Source of the DNA: a virus
Virus record (IMG/VR): IMGVR_UViG_3300046655_001274
Span: 1-38,963 of that record
Strand: one strand, 5' to 3'
Length of the DNA stretch: 38,963 bases
Shown in pieces: positions 83-18,350 of this stretch. The notes beneath the pieces were generated by a model, which ran no database searches, had not been told where the DNA came from, and saw only the letters and a list, made by a program, of their open reading frames with translations. Each line of letters starts with the position of its first letter. Position 1 is the first letter of the stretch. Position numbers and translations under genes: made by a program.

Positions 83-331
83 TTATAGCAGGTGTTTTTG
101 TATCAAATTTATCCAAACACCAATTGCGTCTACTACAACAAAATAAAAAGATAATGCACACAACCAATACATTTTTTGACGAATAAAAAATATCATACTT
201 AATAGATTGACGATTGTAAATACAACAAACCCCCAACCAATTAAATCAGGAAAAGGAAGAATTGCACCTCCCATCATCCCCAATACTGCTATTGCTATTT
301 CGAATTTTTTGTTGTGTTTGTCTTTTGCCAT
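83..331 (-). CDS. small three-helix membrane protein
   Basis: An 82-residue protein with three hydrophobic stretches (about residues 10-28, 32-50 and 55-76) separated by short polar turns such as IRQK. It is therefore probably an inner-membrane protein. The basic N-terminus (MAKDKHNKK) would stay in the cytoplasm. It begins inside the 3' end of the Ldh2-family dehydrogenase gene (37-base overlap), which implies cotranscription. The last helix (FYFVVVDAIGVWINL) loosely recalls small PnuC/YgjV-like proteins, but I would not assign transport on that basis. An alternative frame over the same DNA (6-236) is Cys- and Ile-rich and looks like a shadow. Function unknown. Confidence 0.7.
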   Translation of the reverse strand: MAKDKHNKKFEIAIAVLGMMGGAILPFPDLIGWGFVVFTIVNLLSMIFFIRQKMYWLCALSFYFVVVDAIGVWINLIQKHLL

Positions 332-1374
332 TTGGAAAATCCAAGAGTATTAAGTTCTTCAAGCAACTCATCGGATACTTCTATTCCTTTTTTGTGAACT
401 TTCAATGAAGTATTATACTCCAATTCACCTGGCACTAAAATTTCGTCTGTATCTTTAGCAGTTTTGCTTGATTTGATTTCACGCATTACATCCCCAACAT
501 TTTTCTTGAAAGTTTTTATATCTGTAAAGTTTTCAGGATCAATGCAAATAAAGAAATGTCCAATGTCATAATTAGGATTCTGAGTATCCCCTTCGTATAA
601 ACCACTTAATTGACTCATACAAGCACCACTTTGAAAAGCAGAACACATTAATTCAATTGCAATTGATAATCCAGAACCCTTATGCCCTCCAATTGGTGTT
701 AATGCGGCTATGCCCTTCTTTAACCACCTCAGTGATCTTTCAAATGTCAAATTTTCATTTTCTGAAACAATCGCACAATTTGGTACATAATTATCAGGTG
801 TTTTTCTTGCCATTACTTCCAAATCACCTCTTTGATAAACTGATGTTGCACAATCAATACTAAATGGATAGTTTTCATCAGACGGAAATGCTATTGCATA
901 TGGATTCGTACCCATCTTGGGTTCTACTCCACCATAAGGAGCAACTGCCGGACGAGCATTCGTAAAACTCATTCCTACCAAATTTTGGGTAGTTGCGTAT
1001 CGTGAATAGTAACTTGCAATTCCATAATGCGATGAATTTTTCACCGCAACACAACTTATACCATGTTGTTGTGTTTTGGTGATTGCCTGATTTATTGCAT
1101 ACTTACCGACAATTTGACCCAATGCATTATGACCATCAATTGTAACGCAAGATTTATTGTCACGAACTATTTCTGGTGTTGCATTCACATCTATTACTTT
1201 ATCTTTAATTCTTTTTATGTAATAACCAAGTCTACTTAATCCGTGGGTAGTGAAACCCAATTCATCTCCACTTAATAATACATCTGCACAAATATTTGAG
1301 TATTTTGAAGGCACACCATTTTTTTCAAATGCCCACTTCGCAAACTCGAATCCTTCTTTAAATTTAATATTCAT
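295..1374 (-). CDS. Ldh2/MDH2-family NAD(P)-dependent dehydrogenase (malate/lactate/ureidoglycolate dehydrogenase-like)
   Basis: A 359-residue member of the Ldh2/MDH2 oxidoreductase family (COG2055), close to the usual family length. Members reduce 2-oxoacids or cyclic imines, or oxidise 2-hydroxyacids, with NAD(P)H. Visible family signatures are T43-H44-G45 (the usual SHG motif with the catalytic His), SSHYGIASYY around H116, GTNP at 155-158, the SIDCATS block with D174, and GGHKGSG at 229-235 followed by E241. All core motifs are present, so an active enzyme is likely, but the substrate cannot be read from the sequence. Its ATG overlaps the stop of the upstream membrane gene by four bases (ATGA), so the two are probably translationally coupled. 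In a phage this is a candidate auxiliary metabolic gene acting in the host cytoplasm. Confidence 0.88.
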   Translation of the reverse strand: MNIKFKEGFEFAKWAFEKNGVPSKYSNICADVLLSGDELGFTTHGLSRLGYYIKRIKDKVIDVNATPEIVRDNKSCVTIDGHNALGQIVGKYAINQAITKTQQHGISCVAVKNSSHYGIASYYSRYATTQNLVGMSFTNARPAVAPYGGVEPKMGTNPYAIAFPSDENYPFSIDCATSVYQRGDLEVMARKTPDNYVPNCAIVSENENLTFERSLRWLKKGIAALTPIGGHKGSGLSIAIELMCSAFQSGACMSQLSGLYEGDTQNPNYDIGHFFICIDPENFTDIKTFKKNVGDVMREIKSSKTAKDTDEILVPGELEYNTSLKVHKKGIEVSDELLEELNTLGFSKWQKTNTTKNSK

Positions 1375-1772
1375 TTTGTTTTTCCAGATGCTTCTCGTTT
1401 CTCTCTTGCCTTTCTCACTTTTCTACGAACATATGGTTTTAAAAAATAATGACCTATGAATCCTTTGATTGTTGGTTTTCCGAGTTTTACCCTCATTTTA
1501 TTTTCGTACCGAGTCATTGGACAATCCAACACTCTCGAAAAAGAAATTAAAGCAATAAAAGAACATAATGGTAAACATACATACCACGGAAATCCATAAG
1601 GAGTAAATCCTTGAAATGCTAAAATAAAGAATGCACAAAAATTACCAATCACAACCATCCAATGCAATAAAACAACTATCAGTAGTTTTAAATGCTTCAA
1701 TGGATTTGTAGGCAAAAACTTTAGAAACCTTTTTTCGTCTGAGGGTTCTGTTATGTTTTCTTTTTGATCCAT
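1371..1772 (-). CDS. DUF2784-like membrane protein
   Basis: A 133-residue protein with two long hydrophobic segments (about 29-52 and 60-80). They are followed by the motif LDCPMTRYENKMR and then GFIGHYFLKP and a very basic C-terminus. The C-P-x-T-x-x-E-N block followed by a HY-containing segment resembles DUF2784, a family of small bacterial inner-membrane proteins of unknown function; this is recognition from memory. The start ATG has no Shine-Dalgarno sequence, but the 9-mer TATATTTAT sits five bases upstream, so the message may be leaderless. It overlaps the dehydrogenase gene by four bases. The DUF name carries no known function. Confidence 0.75.
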   Translation of the reverse strand: MDQKENITEPSDEKRFLKFLPTNPLKHLKLLIVVLLHWMVVIGNFCAFFILAFQGFTPYGFPWYVCLPLCSFIALISFSRVLDCPMTRYENKMRVKLGKPTIKGFIGHYFLKPYVRRKVRKAREKREASGKTK

Positions 1773-3574: not shown

Positions 3575-4031
3575 ATAGACTCCCAAATTTATTGACACCC
3601 GCACGAATAAAAGTGAGTTTAACAAACTCTTCAAAAAAGAAAACATATGCAGGGCCATCGTAATTTTCTCTTGCTATTTCAATTTCTTTCTCGTATATTT
3701 TCATCCACTTTGTACATTCATTGTATGTATATTGATCAACATCATTTTGTTTTAAATTAAAACGATGTATCAACATAGCAAGATTCAACTCATCTTTTGT
3801 TAATGTTCCATATCTGCGAATGTCTTTATTAAATTCCTCTTTTAACAATTTATTTTTTTGATATTCGTCATATGATTTTTGAAGAACAGGATTAATTAAA
3901 TTCTGCCAACCTTCAAATTTTTTATTCAGAGGTGGTGCTTTTATATACCCATCACCCTCGGCACATGAAGTAACCAAGGGTGATAATAAAATAAAATATG
4001 TAACAATTAAAAACCTAACAAAAAATTGCAT
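3573..4031 (-). CDS. putative lipoprotein of unknown function
   Basis: A 152-residue protein with an N-terminal hydrophobic signal ending in LVTSC, a lipobox predicting lipidation at Cys23. The mature part is rich in Lys, Glu, Tyr and Asn and looks mainly helical and soluble, so it should sit in the periplasm tethered to a membrane. Its ATG overlaps the stop of the secreted protease gene by one base (TAATG), which implies coupled translation and perhaps a shared task in the envelope, for example a partner or regulator of the protease. I do not recognise the family. Confidence 0.75.
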   Translation of the reverse strand: MQFFVRFLIVTYFILLSPLVTSCAEGDGYIKAPPLNKKFEGWQNLINPVLQKSYDEYQKNKLLKEEFNKDIRRYGTLTKDELNLAMLIHRFNLKQNDVDQYTYNECTKWMKIYEKEIEIARENYDGPAYVFFFEEFVKLTFIRAGVNKFGSL

Positions 4032-5059
4032 TATCTATGCTCAATTCTGTAAGGATTCATTCCGTCAAATGGCATAATCTTTAATTCTTTTTCAAACTCG
4101 TCAGATTTATCAAATCCATTTAACAATTTATCATCAAATTTATACTCAGTTTTAATTCTATAAGGAAATGTAGACTTTGCACCGTACTCATCCTCATCTT
4201 CATCTTCATCCTTGCGAATAACACCTGTATCTTCGATTTGCATACTTAAAATTTCTTCCATAGGAGGCATTTCAACTTTAGGATCAATTGCCCACATAAT
4301 ATCATTCTTTTCTGCCCAACGAATCATTCTACGCACAGGAACCATTAAATTAAATCCTTCACCCGCACCACGCACAATCATGCCAACATATTGTCCATTT
4401 TGCAAATAAACTCCACCACCAGAACTTCCTGGAAAAGCAGTAACGGTTGTTTGATCATATTCAAACTTATCAAGAGTTCTTCCGACTTGTGAAATAATTC
4501 CGGTTGTCATTGAATTTGCACCCATTTGACCAAGCAACGAACCAACATGAAATAAATCAGTTCCAATTGGAATGATTCTATCATTTTCTTCTTTAAGATA
4601 AAAATCAACCCCGTCTTTTGCATAATCCTTTGCACGAACCATTAGAAGTGCCAAATCATGACCATCTTCAGCATTTGAATACTTGATGATCTTAGCATCC
4701 ATTTTCATTTCACCAACTCTACGACCTTTTTCTACAAGTTCCTTCACAATTGATGCGTCATCAAACTCAACAATTTTTACAGGAGCACCACCTTCAATAA
4801 CACTACGAACTTTGCGAAGATTGTCTACAACGTGAGCAGCCGTCCAAACAAATGTAACTTTTTTTCCGTCAACTTCACGAATAATCATTGCACCAGAACC
4901 TTCTGAACTACTATATCGTGCTTTTGCTTTAATTGTAACAGAAACATCTTGCAAGTGATCCGCAACTTCCCTTAATTGTTTGTAATTTGGTGCTCCGAAA
5001 ATAACATTGACGGAAATTGCCATAAAGGCCACGATTGCGAAAATCTTGCTTGAATTCAT
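4031..5059 (-). CDS. secreted trypsin-like serine protease
   Basis: A 342-residue protein with a Sec signal peptide (hydrophobic residues 5-22, likely cut near FGA) and a chymotrypsin/DegP-like protease domain. The catalytic triad is visible: H76 in WTAAHVV, D135 in GHDLALL and S213 in PGSSGGG. The fold ends near residue 250. A tail follows with a run of Asp/Glu (about 284-291) and a basic/aromatic segment. No PDZ domain is evident. It should act in the periplasm or outside the cell. A strong Shine-Dalgarno (AGGAGGG) lies seven bases before the ATG. It heads a coupled pair with the lipoprotein and sits between nrdA and nrdB. Possible roles are host envelope remodelling, lysis timing or superinfection exclusion; none is shown. 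Confidence 0.88.
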   Translation of the reverse strand: MNSSKIFAIVAFMAISVNVIFGAPNYKQLREVADHLQDVSVTIKAKARYSSSEGSGAMIIREVDGKKVTFVWTAAHVVDNLRKVRSVIEGGAPVKIVEFDDASIVKELVEKGRRVGEMKMDAKIIKYSNAEDGHDLALLMVRAKDYAKDGVDFYLKEENDRIIPIGTDLFHVGSLLGQMGANSMTTGIISQVGRTLDKFEYDQTTVTAFPGSSGGGVYLQNGQYVGMIVRGAGEGFNLMVPVRRMIRWAEKNDIMWAIDPKVEMPPMEEILSMQIEDTGVIRKDEDEDEDEYGAKSTFPYRIKTEYKFDDKLLNGFDKSDEFEKELKIMPFDGMNPYRIEHR

Positions 5060-12397: not shown

Positions 12398-12628
12398 TTA
12401 AGAAGATTTTCCGCCATTTTCAACGAAATTGTAAAAGTCAGAAGCAATTTCTAATACTTCACGTGTGGTTGGAATTGGTGGTATTTCCAGGGGAGTATTT
12501 TCAAAAGTGGCACGACTTTCCAACTCTTCTTTTTCCATGTGCCATGCTTCCCATACCATCTCTTTTGCACTTTTTAATACTTGCAATCGAATGCCGTAGG
12601 CATCGTATTTTTCATTTTCATTATCCAT
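12398..12628 (-). CDS. small phage protein of unknown function
   Basis: A 76-residue soluble, acidic protein. A first helix carries many aromatic and charged residues (YDAYGIRLQVLKSAKEMVWE). A Pro-rich turn (PLEIPPIPTTRE) and a second helix (VLEIASDFYNFV) follow. It sits between the methyltransferase and SSB genes. A TATATTTAT motif lies 37 bases before the ATG, and no Shine-Dalgarno is seen. It looks like the small helical proteins found near gp32 in other T4-like marine phages, but I cannot name a function. Confidence 0.65.
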   Translation of the reverse strand: MDNENEKYDAYGIRLQVLKSAKEMVWEAWHMEKEELESRATFENTPLEIPPIPTTREVLEIASDFYNFVENGGKSS

Positions 12629-13475: not shown

Positions 13476-15041
13476 TTAAATCTTACTGCCTTCAAATCTT
13501 TTCATTTCTCCGTTATTGTATCGATAACGGACTTCAACTTCAACAATTTCTTTTGAAGAACCATATCCTTCTTCTTCAACATCGTATGTTAACAGATTTA
13601 TGGGTCTCTTCATTATTTCATGTAAATAGGCCATTGTACCAGTTGCATACTTAATATCTAAGGGTCTGCCTTCGAAGTCGTGTCTTAATAAAATCTCTGT
13701 GTTCTTATATTTCATATTTTCCATATAAATTACAGGTCTTCCCATATTGATATGACGATTGATAAGTTTTTCTTTTATCTTTTTGTAATCTTTGCTAACA
13801 ACAACATACTTGTTTTTTGATTTATCTAATGCATATTCAAAGTATTCATGTTTTTCGCAAAAATCTTTTGTAAAAAACTCATTGAGAAATGTAACATCAT
13901 TATAGTTCTCACGAACTTCATAAAGTTTTTCACGACCAAGATTTAAGTTCTTATTCCAATATCTTTTTTCATCACCATTGTCACACATTTCATATTCTTT
14001 ACCGAATCTTCCTTTGTTCCAACGGTCTTCAATATCACGCAACAATGTATTTCCGAGTTTATATGGATTGTTCATATTGTATTTTCCACCTAAAACTCCT
14101 GCATGGTGTTTTGCATAATCAAATATCCCATCGTCTCCTGCAAAATTACAAGTTGCCATAATATAAGAATCCCAATAACTTGCCCAACCTTCGTTAAGAA
14201 CCTTTGTCATTCCCTGTGGACGATAATAAATTGCTTCGTCACGGATCATACTTAGTATGTTTTGTTGCCAAGGTTCTAACCGACAATGATTTATGATCAT
14301 TAACATAATATCACGTTCAGGTTGCAATGGAAATTTATTTTCTGCTAACTTTTGTCGTTCTTCACGTTCCCTTCTTTGCTTTTCAATATAATGAGAAGGA
14401 TTCACATACTTGTCCATATATTCTTTTGTATCAAGACGAGTTACGTGTTCACGTGGTTGACGATCTTCAAAGTTGAATTTAGTTGCTTTCTTTAAATTAC
14501 TTTCACGATAACAAAGTGATGGATCAATTAAATCATCAATAGCAAGAGCCGCATTCAAAAAGTCTTTTACTTTTTTACGACCAAATCTATCCATGTACAT
14601 ACGAATCTTATCACTATGATTTGCCATAACATTCATCATGTTACGATTAGTATGCTTGAACATAATATTGTTCTTAAAGAAATCACTATGTGCAGTTGCG
14701 TGTGCAACAACAGTTAGATTATCAACGATAGGATTGTTTCGTTGTAGGTACATATATGTTGGATCAGTATTTACAACCATTTCATAAATCTTACCCATAC
14801 CATGATGATACTGATAATGAAGTTGTTCAAATTGTTGCCCGAAATTAAAATGAGGATAACGAACTGGAAATCCACCATACGCCGCAATCTCAACTATTTC
14901 ATCTGCATCAAATTCTTCAATACACAAAGGGTATGGATCGAGTCCATTATCGTAACAAGCCTGTAAACACTCAGGTATAAGAGCAGCCAACTCTGGACAA
15001 ACTCCTTCATTTAAACTATGACTTTCCCATGCAATTCCCAT
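13476..15041 (-). CDS. spoVR: SpoVR/YcgB family protein
   Basis: A 521-residue protein of the SpoVR family, close to E. coli YcgB in length (about 510). Recognisable blocks are the N-terminal DPYPLCIEEFDADEIVEIAAYGGFP region, FGQQFEQLHYQYHHGMGKIYEMVVNTDPTYMYL, the His/Asp-rich AHATAHSDFFKNNIMF and the NEGWASYWDSYIM block. Family members affect spore cortex formation in Bacillus and stationary-phase or stress physiology elsewhere; the biochemical role is unknown. It overlaps the YeaH-like gene by one base (TAATG) and has a strong Shine-Dalgarno (AGGAGGT) at good spacing. The presence of SpoVR does not mean the host sporulates. Confidence 0.94.
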   Translation of the reverse strand: MGIAWESHSLNEGVCPELAALIPECLQACYDNGLDPYPLCIEEFDADEIVEIAAYGGFPVRYPHFNFGQQFEQLHYQYHHGMGKIYEMVVNTDPTYMYLQRNNPIVDNLTVVAHATAHSDFFKNNIMFKHTNRNMMNVMANHSDKIRMYMDRFGRKKVKDFLNAALAIDDLIDPSLCYRESNLKKATKFNFEDRQPREHVTRLDTKEYMDKYVNPSHYIEKQRREREERQKLAENKFPLQPERDIMLMIINHCRLEPWQQNILSMIRDEAIYYRPQGMTKVLNEGWASYWDSYIMATCNFAGDDGIFDYAKHHAGVLGGKYNMNNPYKLGNTLLRDIEDRWNKGRFGKEYEMCDNGDEKRYWNKNLNLGREKLYEVRENYNDVTFLNEFFTKDFCEKHEYFEYALDKSKNKYVVVSKDYKKIKEKLINRHINMGRPVIYMENMKYKNTEILLRHDFEGRPLDIKYATGTMAYLHEIMKRPINLLTYDVEEEGYGSSKEIVEVEVRYRYNNGEMKRFEGSKI

Positions 15042-16198
15042 TAGAACGGTACCTCCTCTTCAGCAGGTGTTAATAATTTTTGAAGTGTTTTAAATACATC
15101 GGATGCTGAATCCATTGATGCAGTAACAATTGTTTTTGGATCAAGATCACCAGTTGATAATTGTGCTTGAATTGCTGGTATAAATGTTGCCCAACTTCTG
15201 ATTGCTTTAACCTCTGTAATTCCTATTAAATTTGCATATGTTTGCATTTTTTTCAAATACTCAACACATAAATCATTATCAGAACCAAAGTTTTCTCCGT
15301 CACTTAGATAAAATACATAAATGTTCCACTCGTTTAATGGAAATGCTTTTTCTACTACATCATTGACTAAATGAAACGCACTACTTATTTGAGTACCACC
15401 ACCACTTTTATATTTATAGAACTTTTCTTGATCTACTTCTTGTGCGTGGTGATCATGAACAATATACTTAACTTGAGTTTCTTGATAAAATCTACGAACC
15501 CAATTGTCTAAGTACCAACACAACTCACGAACCAAACCTCGTTTTTCGTCGTCCATACTCGCAGAAATGTCGGACACGAAAAATATGGCCGCATTAGTAT
15601 CAGGTACTTCAACTGAACTCCAACTTCTGAATTCTTTGTCGTCTTTAATAGGATAAAAATTAGATAAATCTTCAGGATTGTAGTCTTCGGAAGAAATCAA
15701 ACGTTTAAACGCATTTTTCAGAGTTTTGCGTTTGTGAAGCAAACTATTGTTTCCAACTTTTGCAATACGATTCCATTTGATTTTTTCTTTTACCATTTCT
15801 CCATTATCCTTTGGTTTTAGATTTGGTAATTGAAGTTCTTCTCCTATCATATCAAAATAAGCATCCATGCTAATTCCGACATCAATTTCGTGACCATCTC
15901 CTTCACCCTCACCCCCTTCACCAGGTTGACCACCTTGACCACTACCTTGTTGTTGGGGTCCTTCACCGACTTCGTCACCAACACCGGCTTCTCCGTTGCC
16001 GATTCCACTTCCATCGGCAGGTTGTCCGTAACGAAAACTTGGAAGTTCTACATGAGGAACTCGCACCACAACGAAATCTTTCCCACGTCGTGATATTCTT
16101 TGACCACTCTTAATGTGTTTTTTAAGTTTATCATCAACATTTCCCTTGACGATATCCCTATACTCACCGTGATCTTCTCTTATTCTGCGTGATGGCAT
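15041..16198 (-). CDS. yeaH: YeaH/DUF444 family protein with von Willebrand A-like domain
   Basis: A 385-residue DUF444 protein. The N-terminus carries the family segment RREDH-like (RRIREDHGEYRDIVKGN) and a Gly/Glu/Gln-rich linker (61-105). The C-terminal half is a VWA-like domain with a complete MIDAS metal site: D210-x-S212-x-S214, T269 in GGGTQ, and D300 in LSDGEN. In enterobacteria YeaH works with the kinase YeaG (PrkA) during nitrogen starvation and stationary phase; its molecular role is unsettled. The gene lies 17 bases downstream of prkA and overlaps spoVR by one base, so the three are one operon. The length fits the family (E. coli YeaH is about 430 residues), slightly short. Confidence 0.93.
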   Translation of the reverse strand: MPSRRIREDHGEYRDIVKGNVDDKLKKHIKSGQRISRRGKDFVVVRVPHVELPSFRYGQPADGSGIGNGEAGVGDEVGEGPQQQGSGQGGQPGEGGEGEGDGHEIDVGISMDAYFDMIGEELQLPNLKPKDNGEMVKEKIKWNRIAKVGNNSLLHKRKTLKNAFKRLISSEDYNPEDLSNFYPIKDDKEFRSWSSVEVPDTNAAIFFVSDISASMDDEKRGLVRELCWYLDNWVRRFYQETQVKYIVHDHHAQEVDQEKFYKYKSGGGTQISSAFHLVNDVVEKAFPLNEWNIYVFYLSDGENFGSDNDLCVEYLKKMQTYANLIGITEVKAIRSWATFIPAIQAQLSTGDLDPKTIVTASMDSASDVFKTLQKLLTPAEEEVPF

Positions 16199-16215
16199 AA
16201 CTAAGTCCGTTGAGA

Positions 16216-18306
16216 TTACTCTTCGTCATCGTCTGCGTCACCACGTGCGAATATACTTCCAACATAAGTAAGAACATCTGACGCACTATCTTCATCGTAT
16301 CCAAACGAAACAATAAGACGTTGCTTCAATGCGTCTATCTTTTCAAGAAGTTCCTTATCAACTACAGTTGCAGTATCTTGTGCAAGAGCAGACAACTTGA
16401 TACTATCTTTAGTATCTTCGAACAACTTCTTTTCAAGTGCTTTGTAAAGTTGCTCGTTTGAGTCATACTTAAACTCTTTACCCTTGGCGGCAAGTCCACC
16501 CATATAGTTCATAATTTCTCTACGAAAATCATCTTTCATTCCAGTAGAAATACCAATTTTTTCTTCAATACTACGCATCAAAGTTTCGTTTGCAGTTTCT
16601 TCTTTTCCAGTTACAGGATTTGTAACTTTTTCATCTTGAATATATGCAACGATGTTATCAATGTAGTTGGTGCAAAGTGCTTTTATTGCTTCTTCACTAC
16701 TACTAAGTGCTTGTTGTACTTCTCGTTTCACAATTCTATCATATTCCTTTTCTACAAGTTCAAGACGTTCAAACATAGACTTTTTATCATCTTCGTTTAA
16801 GAACCCACTATAACTTTTAAGTCCTTCACGAATTTGTGCAAACAACATAAATGGATTTAAACTTTTAGCACCCATTCTTGGATTAACGATTGCATTGGAA
16901 AACTGATTTTGAATGAAACGAGCAGATACTCCACCATACAATCCTTCTTTTGGAGATTCTTCTTGCATTTCTTTTACGTGTTCATCTGTGAATCCATGTA
17001 CACTCTGACCATTGTAAAGTTTTGCTTTTTGAATAATGCTCATGTCTTGCTTTGAACTTTCTTCTAAACGACTTACTACTGCGAACAATGCAGCCAAGTA
17101 TGTTGTGTGAGGTGCAATGTGTTTGTTTACGGTACTTGTATTATAGAAGTGATCATAAATTTTCTTTTCTTCAGAAATTTTAAGAAGATAAGGAATATCG
17201 ATTTTGATAGTTCTATCACGCAGTGCTTCCATGAATTTATTATTGGTTAATTTTTCAAACTCAGCATTATTAGTATGCCCAAGAATAACCTCATCAATTG
17301 GTACTTGGTTAAAACGACGTGGTTTTACACGATGCTCTTGAGTTGCTCCAAGTAGATCATACAAGAATTCTGTTTGAAGTTTAAGAATTTCTTGGAACTC
17401 AATAAGACCACGATTAGAGACTAAAAATTCTCCGTCAAAATCAAATGCACGGGGATCACTTTCACTACCATACTCTGCTAACTTACGATAATTAATATCA
17501 CCGGTTAACTCGGTTGCATCTTGTGATTTTTCATCCTTGGGTTGAAATGTTCCGATTCCCACACGGTTCTTTTCTGATAAAACGACTCTTCTAACAACGA
17601 CATGGTCTAGAACCCTGCGGTAATCACCCCCGTGCATTTCCATTAGTTGATTATAGTAATACTCGTTTACAGGATTCAATGCTCCATCAAGTTTTAACTT
17701 ATAATCATCACTGGAAATATTTTTATTTAAATTACTAATTACTTCATTACGGACTTTAGTAGGAAGTAATTTTAATGGTTCTTCGTTCATTGGACATGGA
17801 ACTAATTGCTCTTCACCATTTTTATCTGCGATTTTCCAACTAAAAGAATACAACGCACCATCTTCTGTTGTTGTATACTCTTCAAGTCCTTTTTTGAGTG
17901 CAGTTACAATTGTTGATTTACTACTACCAACTGGTCCGTGTAGTAATATCACTCTTCGTTCTGGACCATAGTGTCTACTTGCACTTTTTAAAATGTCCAT
18001 AAATTCCATCAAGTTTTCTTCAAGACCATAAATAGAGATGTCACCAAGACCTTGAAAAAACTTATATTTAACATATTGCCTTTTGCAATATTTAAATTCT
18101 TCTGTTCCATGTGACATTACCATATCATAAAGTCTTTGATATGAATTTCTTGCAACACGTGGACTTTCTTCAATCATCTGCAAATAATCCCAAAATGATC
18201 CTGTCCAATTAAGAGACTTGTATGTTTTTACCGAATCGTCATTTTCTGATCTGATTAAAGATTCAAGTGAATTTGTTTTTTCTTTTTGTCGTTTTTTATT
18301 TTCCAT
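16216..18306 (-). CDS. prkA: PrkA/YeaG serine protein kinase (AAA+ ATPase)
   Basis: About 696 residues. An N-terminal PrkA AAA+ domain holds Walker A GPVGSSKST (near 126-134) and the family block NRGLIEFQEILK (near 305-315). The C-terminal PrkA domain follows. The family has been reported as a serine kinase and as an ATP-dependent protease-like protein. In E. coli YeaG acts in nitrogen starvation and stationary-phase regulation. Two ATGs are possible: 18312 is only two bases from AAGG, while 18306 is eight bases away, so I prefer the latter. It heads the prkA-yeaH-spoVR-methyltransferase run. It is somewhat longer than E. coli YeaG (about 644), with insertions in the AAA+ part. Confidence 0.94.
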   Translation of the reverse strand: MENKKRQKEKTNSLESLIRSENDDSVKTYKSLNWTGSFWDYLQMIEESPRVARNSYQRLYDMVMSHGTEEFKYCKRQYVKYKFFQGLGDISIYGLEENLMEFMDILKSASRHYGPERRVILLHGPVGSSKSTIVTALKKGLEEYTTTEDGALYSFSWKIADKNGEEQLVPCPMNEEPLKLLPTKVRNEVISNLNKNISSDDYKLKLDGALNPVNEYYYNQLMEMHGGDYRRVLDHVVVRRVVLSEKNRVGIGTFQPKDEKSQDATELTGDINYRKLAEYGSESDPRAFDFDGEFLVSNRGLIEFQEILKLQTEFLYDLLGATQEHRVKPRRFNQVPIDEVILGHTNNAEFEKLTNNKFMEALRDRTIKIDIPYLLKISEEKKIYDHFYNTSTVNKHIAPHTTYLAALFAVVSRLEESSKQDMSIIQKAKLYNGQSVHGFTDEHVKEMQEESPKEGLYGGVSARFIQNQFSNAIVNPRMGAKSLNPFMLFAQIREGLKSYSGFLNEDDKKSMFERLELVEKEYDRIVKREVQQALSSSEEAIKALCTNYIDNIVAYIQDEKVTNPVTGKEETANETLMRSIEEKIGISTGMKDDFRREIMNYMGGLAAKGKEFKYDSNEQLYKALEKKLFEDTKDSIKLSALAQDTATVVDKELLEKIDALKQRLIVSFGYDEDSASDVLTYVGSIFARGDADDDEE

Positions 18307-18350
18307 AACCATTACCTTATATTTTTTTTGTTAGTGAGTCAAATATTAAA

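What the first reader, a model, noticed from the sequence alone, without database searches (positions are those of the whole stretch)
13476..18312. Phage operon prkA-yeaH-spoVR, a bacterial stress/stationary-phase trio
Seen: three complete genes with intact motifs (PrkA Walker A, YeaH MIDAS, SpoVR His/Asp blocks), spaced 17 bases and one base apart, between phage polymerase and SSB genes. Known: in bacteria PrkA/YeaG and YeaH act together in nitrogen starvation and stationary phase, and SpoVR/YcgB co-occurs with them. Inference: the phage may use the set to push or hold the host in a particular physiological state, or to act on phosphorylation or proteolysis during infection. Carrying all three rather than one suggests they work as a unit.
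Basis: partly seen in the sequence, partly recalled or inferred. Interest (0 to 1): 0.85.

Follow-up and report, generated by a model that had tools for sequence, protein, structure and literature searches.

The report
Phage-borne bacterial stress operon (prkA-yeaH-spoVR)
A large uncultured phage carries an intact, strongly selected copy of a three-gene bacterial stress-response operon; the same trio was captured by viruses on at least two and probably three or more separate occasions, so it is a real and recurrent viral tool whose exact job is still untested.

Summary
Three complete minus-strand genes (SpoVR 13476-15041, YeaH/DUF444 15041-16198, PrkA 16216-18312) lie in a genuine phage replication block, not in a chimera: the block recurs in about 30 independent IMG/VR contigs. 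The trio is intact in 32 of 33 complete close relatives and under purifying selection (dN/dS mostly 0.03-0.08) like phage ssb, exo and dnaB. All 34 large PrkA-bearing records tested also carry SpoVR.

Three phage classes carry the trio: the window's class (an old clade, nearest to Myxococcota/Planctomycetota-type operons), Thermus phages (different gene order), and an E. coli-YeaG-type class in ~640-kb phages. A syntenic Microcystis phage lacks the trio in the same slot.

The 'kinase' reading is weakened: the lysine needed in E. coli YeaG is Asp/Asn/Ser/Glu in the window's lineage, while AAA+ and MIDAS residues are kept. SpoVR has no solved fold match; inteins in phage relatives sit beside two of its most conserved motifs.

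Best explanation: an AAA+ ATPase with vWA partner and SpoVR effector, encoded with replication genes, remodelling host complexes and slowing host physiology. The unit is well supported; its target is inferred. Gene-by-gene annotations existed in Thermus and Ralstonia phages; the breadth and repeated capture appear undescribed.

The parts
16216..18312 (-). PrkA/YeaG-type AAA+ ATPase, 698 aa, first gene of the trio
   Evidence: Pfam PF08298 8.8e-86 and PF06798 3.5e-70; solved relative 9xip E=1e-211
17911..17937 (-). PrkA Walker A GPVGSSKST (K132 = E. coli YeaG K116)
   Evidence: Lys and Ser invariant in all 71 aligned PrkA representatives
15041..16198 (-). YeaH/DUF444 protein with von Willebrand A domain, 385 aa
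   Evidence: Pfam PF04285 2e-65; AlphaFold model matches solved vWA domains, best E=1.1e-8
15557..15571 (-). YeaH MIDAS motif D210-I-S212-A-S214
   Evidence: D210, S212, S214, T269, D300 invariant in 58 sequences
13476..15041 (-). SpoVR/YcgB family protein, 521 aa; shares one base with YeaH (TAATG)
   Evidence: Pfam PF04293 1e-106; junction; AlphaFold mean pLDDT 86
14688..14702 (-). SpoVR H114-x-x-x-H118 motif on a predicted helix
   Evidence: Both His invariant in 71 sequences; helix 105-124
14178..14195 (-). SpoVR NEGWAS motif with E284
   Evidence: E284, G285, A287 invariant in 71 sequences; intein insertion site in phage relatives
12713..13471 (-). DNA methyltransferase directly downstream of the trio in the window's close clade (slot partner, not part of the trio)
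   Evidence: Pfam N6_N4_Mtase 1.7e-43; same place in the close relatives

Best explanation
The phage carries a complete prkA-yeaH-spoVR operon, anciently captured from a bacterium and kept as one functional unit. Most likely mechanism: PrkA is an AAA+ ATPase that remodels protein complexes; YeaH is its vWA/MIDAS partner that chooses or holds the target (as vWA partners do for MoxR-type ATPases); SpoVR is the effector, acting on RNA or through its conserved His/Glu site. Encoded together with the replication genes, the complex slows or redirects host metabolism so that resources go to phage DNA synthesis, mimicking the bacterial starvation 'metabolic brake'. Shown: intact phage genes, co-retention, purifying selection, separate captures, conserved AAA+, MIDAS and SpoVR residues. 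Inferred: physical complex, timing, target and effect on the host.
For: Intact genes and families. Same cassette in about 30 contigs. 32 of 33 complete close-clade loci intact. dN/dS mostly 0.03-0.08, like ssb, exo and dnaB. Trio found together in 77/82 class I, 8/8 Thermus-type and 67/83 class III loci; SpoVR present in 34/34 large PrkA-bearing records, even about 245 kb away in one 642-kb phage. Trees of the three genes agree on the main clades. Replication and nucleotide-metabolism surroundings in both class I clades. Comparative slot: Microcystis phage Mel-JY01 has the same core order without the trio. AAA+ lysine and MIDAS conserved; vWA fold of YeaH. Literature: YeaG and YeaH act together as a metabolic brake in N-starved E. 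coli (PMC10954441, PMC4664914); SpoVR crosslinks RNA in sporulating B. subtilis (PMC12456014).
Against: No expression, binding or phenotype data for any phage copy. The brake phenotype is known only for the E. coli-type YeaGH, which differs from the window's subtype, including at K426 and (in many class I phages) R232. E. coli ycgB is not adjacent to yeaGH. SpoVR's biochemical role is unknown and its model matched no solved fold. Whether the host already has the trio is unknown, since the host is unidentified.
Confidence: 0.45

Rival explanations
1. The complex serves the phage's own machinery: the AAA+ ATPase and vWA partner assemble, load or disassemble phage replication, packaging or particle complexes, with no aim at host physiology.
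For: The window's trio lies inside the replication block and evolves like it; in Thermus phages it lies near terminase, portal or nucleotide genes. AAA+/vWA proteins such as Rea1/Mdn1 remodel large complexes, and the YeaH model also matches Rea1/MDN1 MIDAS domains.
Against: Syntenic relatives with the same core (Mel-JY01, immuto) lack it, so it is not needed by that machinery; bacterial homologues act in starvation and sporulation without phage machinery.
Confidence: 0.25
2. Counter-defence or host take-over: the cassette disables a bacterial defence or stress-triggered shutdown, as other genes in the same slot may do.
For: In Mel-JY01 the slot holds a SAM-lyase-family gene, a kind known to block restriction (general knowledge), and in the window the trio is followed by a DNA methyltransferase.
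Against: Slot sharing is only context; deeper relatives (L029, L032, L035) carry the trio without these neighbours. No defence assay exists.
Confidence: 0.15
3. PrkA acts as a Ser/Thr kinase (or ATP-dependent protease) that changes host proteins by phosphorylation or cleavage.
For: E. coli YeaG kinase-domain K426A and a C-terminal truncation abolish function (PMC4664914); a limited protease activity was reported for B. subtilis PrkA (cited in PMC13001217).
Against: K426 is Asn in the window, Asp/Asn/Ser in all 30 class I representatives and Asp/Glu in bacterial relatives; purified B. anthracis PrkA showed no detectable kinase or protease activity (PMC13001217).
Confidence: 0.12
4. Assembly artefact, host contamination or passenger genes without function.
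For: Window is a 38,963-base fragment; at least one deposited 'phage' hit, LAU1, looks like host yeaGH at a record end.
Against: Same junctions in about 30 contigs, strong purifying selection, trio in cultured Thermus phage genomes.
Confidence: 0.01

Closest known systems
Bacterial prkA-yeaH-spoVR operon (Myxococcota, Planctomycetota, Calditrichota type)
   Same: Same three families in the same order; PrkA 52-56% (best tblastn segment), YeaH about 40%, SpoVR about 45%.
   Different: Phage copies form their own clades in the three trees, with different neighbours.
Thermus phages phiYS40, TMA, MN1, Lalka and phiLo: SpoVR, serine kinase and conserved protein genes
   Same: Cultured phages with all three families clustered.
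   Different: Order yeaH-spoVR-prkA; PrkA only about 31% identical to the window; separate clade.
Ralstonia jumbo phage RsoM2USA ORF28 (SpoVR) and ORF30 (PrkA)
   Same: Cultured jumbo phage annotated with SpoVR and PrkA close together (PMC8504454).
   Different: Best matches are bacterial (Vibrio, Alcanivorax); record not in the collection, so ORF29 and its class could not be checked.
Huge phage LR756511 (595 kb) and LR745206, LR756502, LR756504 (about 640 kb)
   Same: Carry the trio.
   Different: LR756511 is class I clade Ib (49% PrkA); the other three are E. coli-YeaG-type (62-65% to E. coli).
E. coli YeaG, YeaH and YcgB
   Same: Same families; AAA+ lysine conserved.
   Different: YcgB is elsewhere on the chromosome; YeaG has K426, absent in the window's class.
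MoxR-type AAA+ with vWA partner (RavA-ViaA, NorQ-NorD, CbbQ-CbbO)
   Same: Works-like analogy: AAA+ ATPase encoded with a MIDAS/vWA partner.
   Different: PrkA is its own Pfam family; a weak CbbQ-type hit (E=0.26) is not evidence of membership.

Membership tests
PrkA/YeaG family | AAA_PrkA domain plus PrkA C-terminal domain | tested here: met
   PF08298 and PF06798 far above cut-off
PrkA/YeaG family | Walker A lysine | tested here: met
   K132; Lys in every aligned representative
Ser/Thr protein kinase (as PrkA is often named) | Lysine equivalent to E. coli YeaG K426 | tested here: not met
   Asn469 in window; Asp/Asn/Ser in class I, Asp/Glu in related bacteria, Lys only in class III
Ser/Thr protein kinase | Phosphate transfer activity | not testable with these tools
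   Needs purified protein
YeaH/DUF444 | DUF444 profile match | tested here: met
   2e-65
YeaH/DUF444 | vWA fold with complete MIDAS | tested here: met
   MIDAS residues invariant; fold match E=1.1e-8
SpoVR/YcgB | SpoVR profile match and invariant His/Glu residues | tested here: met
   1e-106
Gluzincin metallopeptidase (considered for SpoVR) | HExxH motif | tested here: not met
   HxxxH without the Glu: Ala/Val mostly at that place
Gluzincin metallopeptidase (considered for SpoVR) | Shared fold with solved members | tested here: not met
   No PDB match at E<=0.001
MoxR AAA+/vWA system (considered) | MoxR-type AAA+ domain | tested here: not met
   PrkA-specific AAA family only
MoxR AAA+/vWA system (considered) | Physical AAA+-vWA complex | not testable with these tools
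   No complex prediction or binding data
Phage auxiliary/host-takeover gene | Bacterial homologue, intact in phage, under selection, accessory to the phage lineage | tested here: met
Phage auxiliary/host-takeover gene | Changes host physiology during infection | not testable with these tools
   Needs infection experiments

The most novel reading that the evidence does not exclude
Large phages from unrelated lineages have repeatedly captured a whole AAA+/vWA/SpoVR machine and use it as a dedicated infection-time 'metabolic brake' or RNA-remodelling complex, with SpoVR as a new type of enzyme whose conserved motifs are marked by two intein insertion sites.
Probability: 0.25. Interest if true: 0.85.

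Novelty: new variant of a known kind. Interest (0 to 1): 0.62.

Why it matters
PrkA, YeaH and SpoVR are widespread bacterial proteins tied to starvation and sporulation, but their joint mechanism is unknown. Viruses that repeatedly kept the same three genes together give independent evidence that they are one machine, and supply small cultured systems (Thermus phages) in which its function can be tested directly. The conserved and varied residues also argue that the usual 'protein kinase' label is doubtful for much of the family.

Tried and rejected
Chimera or contamination: rejected. Recent acquisition: rejected; phage class I forms deep clades. Gluzincin metallopeptidase for SpoVR, suggested by HxxxH plus LNEGWAS: not supported by HExxH or fold search; a metal site remains possible. 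Kinase by K426 equivalence: not met. Promoter scan: 49 promoter-like sites against 47 expected by shuffling, so uninformative. Rfam: nothing. The apparently non-coding 400 bases between methyltransferase and SSB hold a conserved 76-aa ORF. Enterobacter phage LAU1 yeaGH (98%/93% to E. coli at the record start) set aside as probable host DNA.

Full report
Observation. The window is a 38,963-base IMG/VR virus fragment with tail, baseplate, SSB, RecA, helicase and ribonucleotide reductase genes. The three ORFs are complete on the minus strand and match SpoVR, DUF444 and PrkA profiles far beyond chance.

Is it really phage? An IMG/VR scan with PrkA gave 161 relatives, 80 kept. In about 30 contigs the trio sits between the same phage genes as in the window. 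Terminase occurs in 23 of 42 records searched, including 8 of the 11 from the window's clade. The fragment is therefore not a chimera.

Selection. Against the window, PrkA, YeaH and SpoVR of close relatives are mostly 84-95% identical with near-saturating silent change and dN/dS mostly 0.03-0.08, as for ssb, exo and dnaB; the upstream polymerase-like gene and its neighbour are only about 45-70% identical in most relatives. Of 33 complete close-clade loci, 32 have intact genes; L016 is frameshifted.

A unit. Full trios were found in 77 of 82 class I loci (the other five are cut by the contig end just there), 8 of 8 Thermus-type and 67 of 83 class III loci. All 34 large PrkA-bearing records tested also hold SpoVR; in LR756502 it lies about 245 kb from prkA. 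In deeper relatives L029, L032 and L035 the trio stays together while none of the window's other genes is found nearby.

Origins. The nearest bacterial operons, in Myxococcota, Planctomycetota, Calditrichota and others, have the same order prkA-yeaH-spoVR. In quick trees, class I phages fall into two well-supported clades: the window's (support 100 in all three genes) and a second that includes the 595-kb LR756511 (99 for PrkA, 100 for YeaH and SpoVR). The two join in YeaH (98) and SpoVR (85) but are unresolved in PrkA; one lineage (L073) lies apart. Thermus phages form a separate clade with order yeaH-spoVR-prkA. A third class is close to E. coli YeaG. Class I/Thermus-type and E. coli-type copies are very distant, so at least two captures are secure and three or more are likely. 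Limits: the bacterial sample was chosen by closeness to the phage query, so a bacterial lineage breaking up the phage clade cannot be excluded; trees used short searches; some class III contigs lack a detected terminase and could be misclassified, though the ~640-kb genomes are deposited phage records.

Slot. The Microcystis phage Mel-JY01 keeps the order polymerase-like gene, h18351 homologue, SSB, RecA, exonuclease, helicase, but between h18351 and SSB has two other genes instead of the trio and methyltransferase; one matches the S-AdoMet lyase family. Flavobacterium phage immuto has two unnamed genes between polymerase and SSB. The trio is thus accessory to this phage lineage but fixed in the sampled members of the window's clade.

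Residues and folds. The Walker A lysine (K132) is universal; the lysine equivalent to E. coli YeaG K426, needed for function there (PMC4664914), is Asn469 in the window and Asp/Asn/Ser/Glu in class I, bacterial relatives and Thermus phages, and Lys only in class III. Purified B. anthracis PrkA had no detectable kinase or protease activity (PMC13001217). A close PrkA relative, named 'serine protein kinase' by its depositors, has been solved (9xip, 9xiq, 9xir). The YeaH model has a vWA domain matching solved ones (E=1.1e-8) and an invariant MIDAS. The SpoVR model is confident (pLDDT 86) but matched nothing in the PDB at E<=0.001. Its invariant residues include H64, E87, H114, H118 and E284; a metal or catalytic site there is inference.

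Inteins. Eleven class I SpoVR ORFs carry inserts of about 400 aa at two points, VN|TNP and NEGWA|S, two ORFs (L058, L059) having both; Pfam confirms intein-splicing and LAGLIDADG domains in the three tested. Inteins commonly sit at conserved sites of important proteins (general knowledge), so this points to these motifs as functionally central.

Mechanism. YeaG and YeaH cooperate to quiesce metabolism in nitrogen-starved E. coli (PMC10954441), and SpoVR binds RNA in vivo in B. subtilis (PMC12456014). Combined with the anatomy, the most likely reading is an AAA+ ATPase with a vWA partner and SpoVR effector, encoded with replication genes and acting on host complexes to slow or redirect host physiology. 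The complex, timing and target are inferred, not shown. The main rivals are a role in the phage's own complexes and a counter-defence role.

Novelty. Gene-by-gene annotations exist for Thermus phages and RsoM2USA (PMC8504454, not in the collection). No paper found in the searches treats the trio as a recurrent phage module; the library misses most subscription journals, so this is not proof of novelty.

Noticed in passing
L046, L047, L050, L054, L055, L056, L058, L059, L063, L070, L076 (SpoVR ORFs): Inteins with LAGLIDADG endonuclease domains interrupt phage SpoVR at two conserved sites (VN|TNP and NEGWA|S); L058/L059 have both.
   Followed up: partly
window 12398-12628 (-): Conserved 76-aa ORF in the apparently non-coding gap between the methyltransferase and SSB; the same stretch aligns in 15 relatives.
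   Followed up: partly
L292 7566-8849 (Mel-JY01): SAM-lyase-family gene occupies the slot where the window has the trio and methyltransferase.
   Followed up: partly
window 295-1772 (-): Malate/L-lactate dehydrogenase-like gene (Ldh_2, 4.6e-102) beside a DUF2784 protein at the fragment's end, a possible metabolic cargo gene.
   Followed up: no
window 4031-5059 (-): Trypsin-like peptidase gene between the two ribonucleotide reductase genes; a relative also lies near the trio in L030.
   Followed up: no
L051 15128-15829 and 9 other class I-b loci: ClpP-family protease gene recurs 5-10 kb downstream of the prkA start.
   Followed up: no
window 18350 boundary: Sharp drop in identity to relatives upstream of PrkA (about 90% to about 55%), suggesting a recombination boundary at the start of the conserved block.
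   Followed up: partly
L206 1-3308 (Enterobacter phage LAU1): yeaGH almost identical to E. coli at the very start of a lambda-like phage record, probably flanking host DNA.
   Followed up: no
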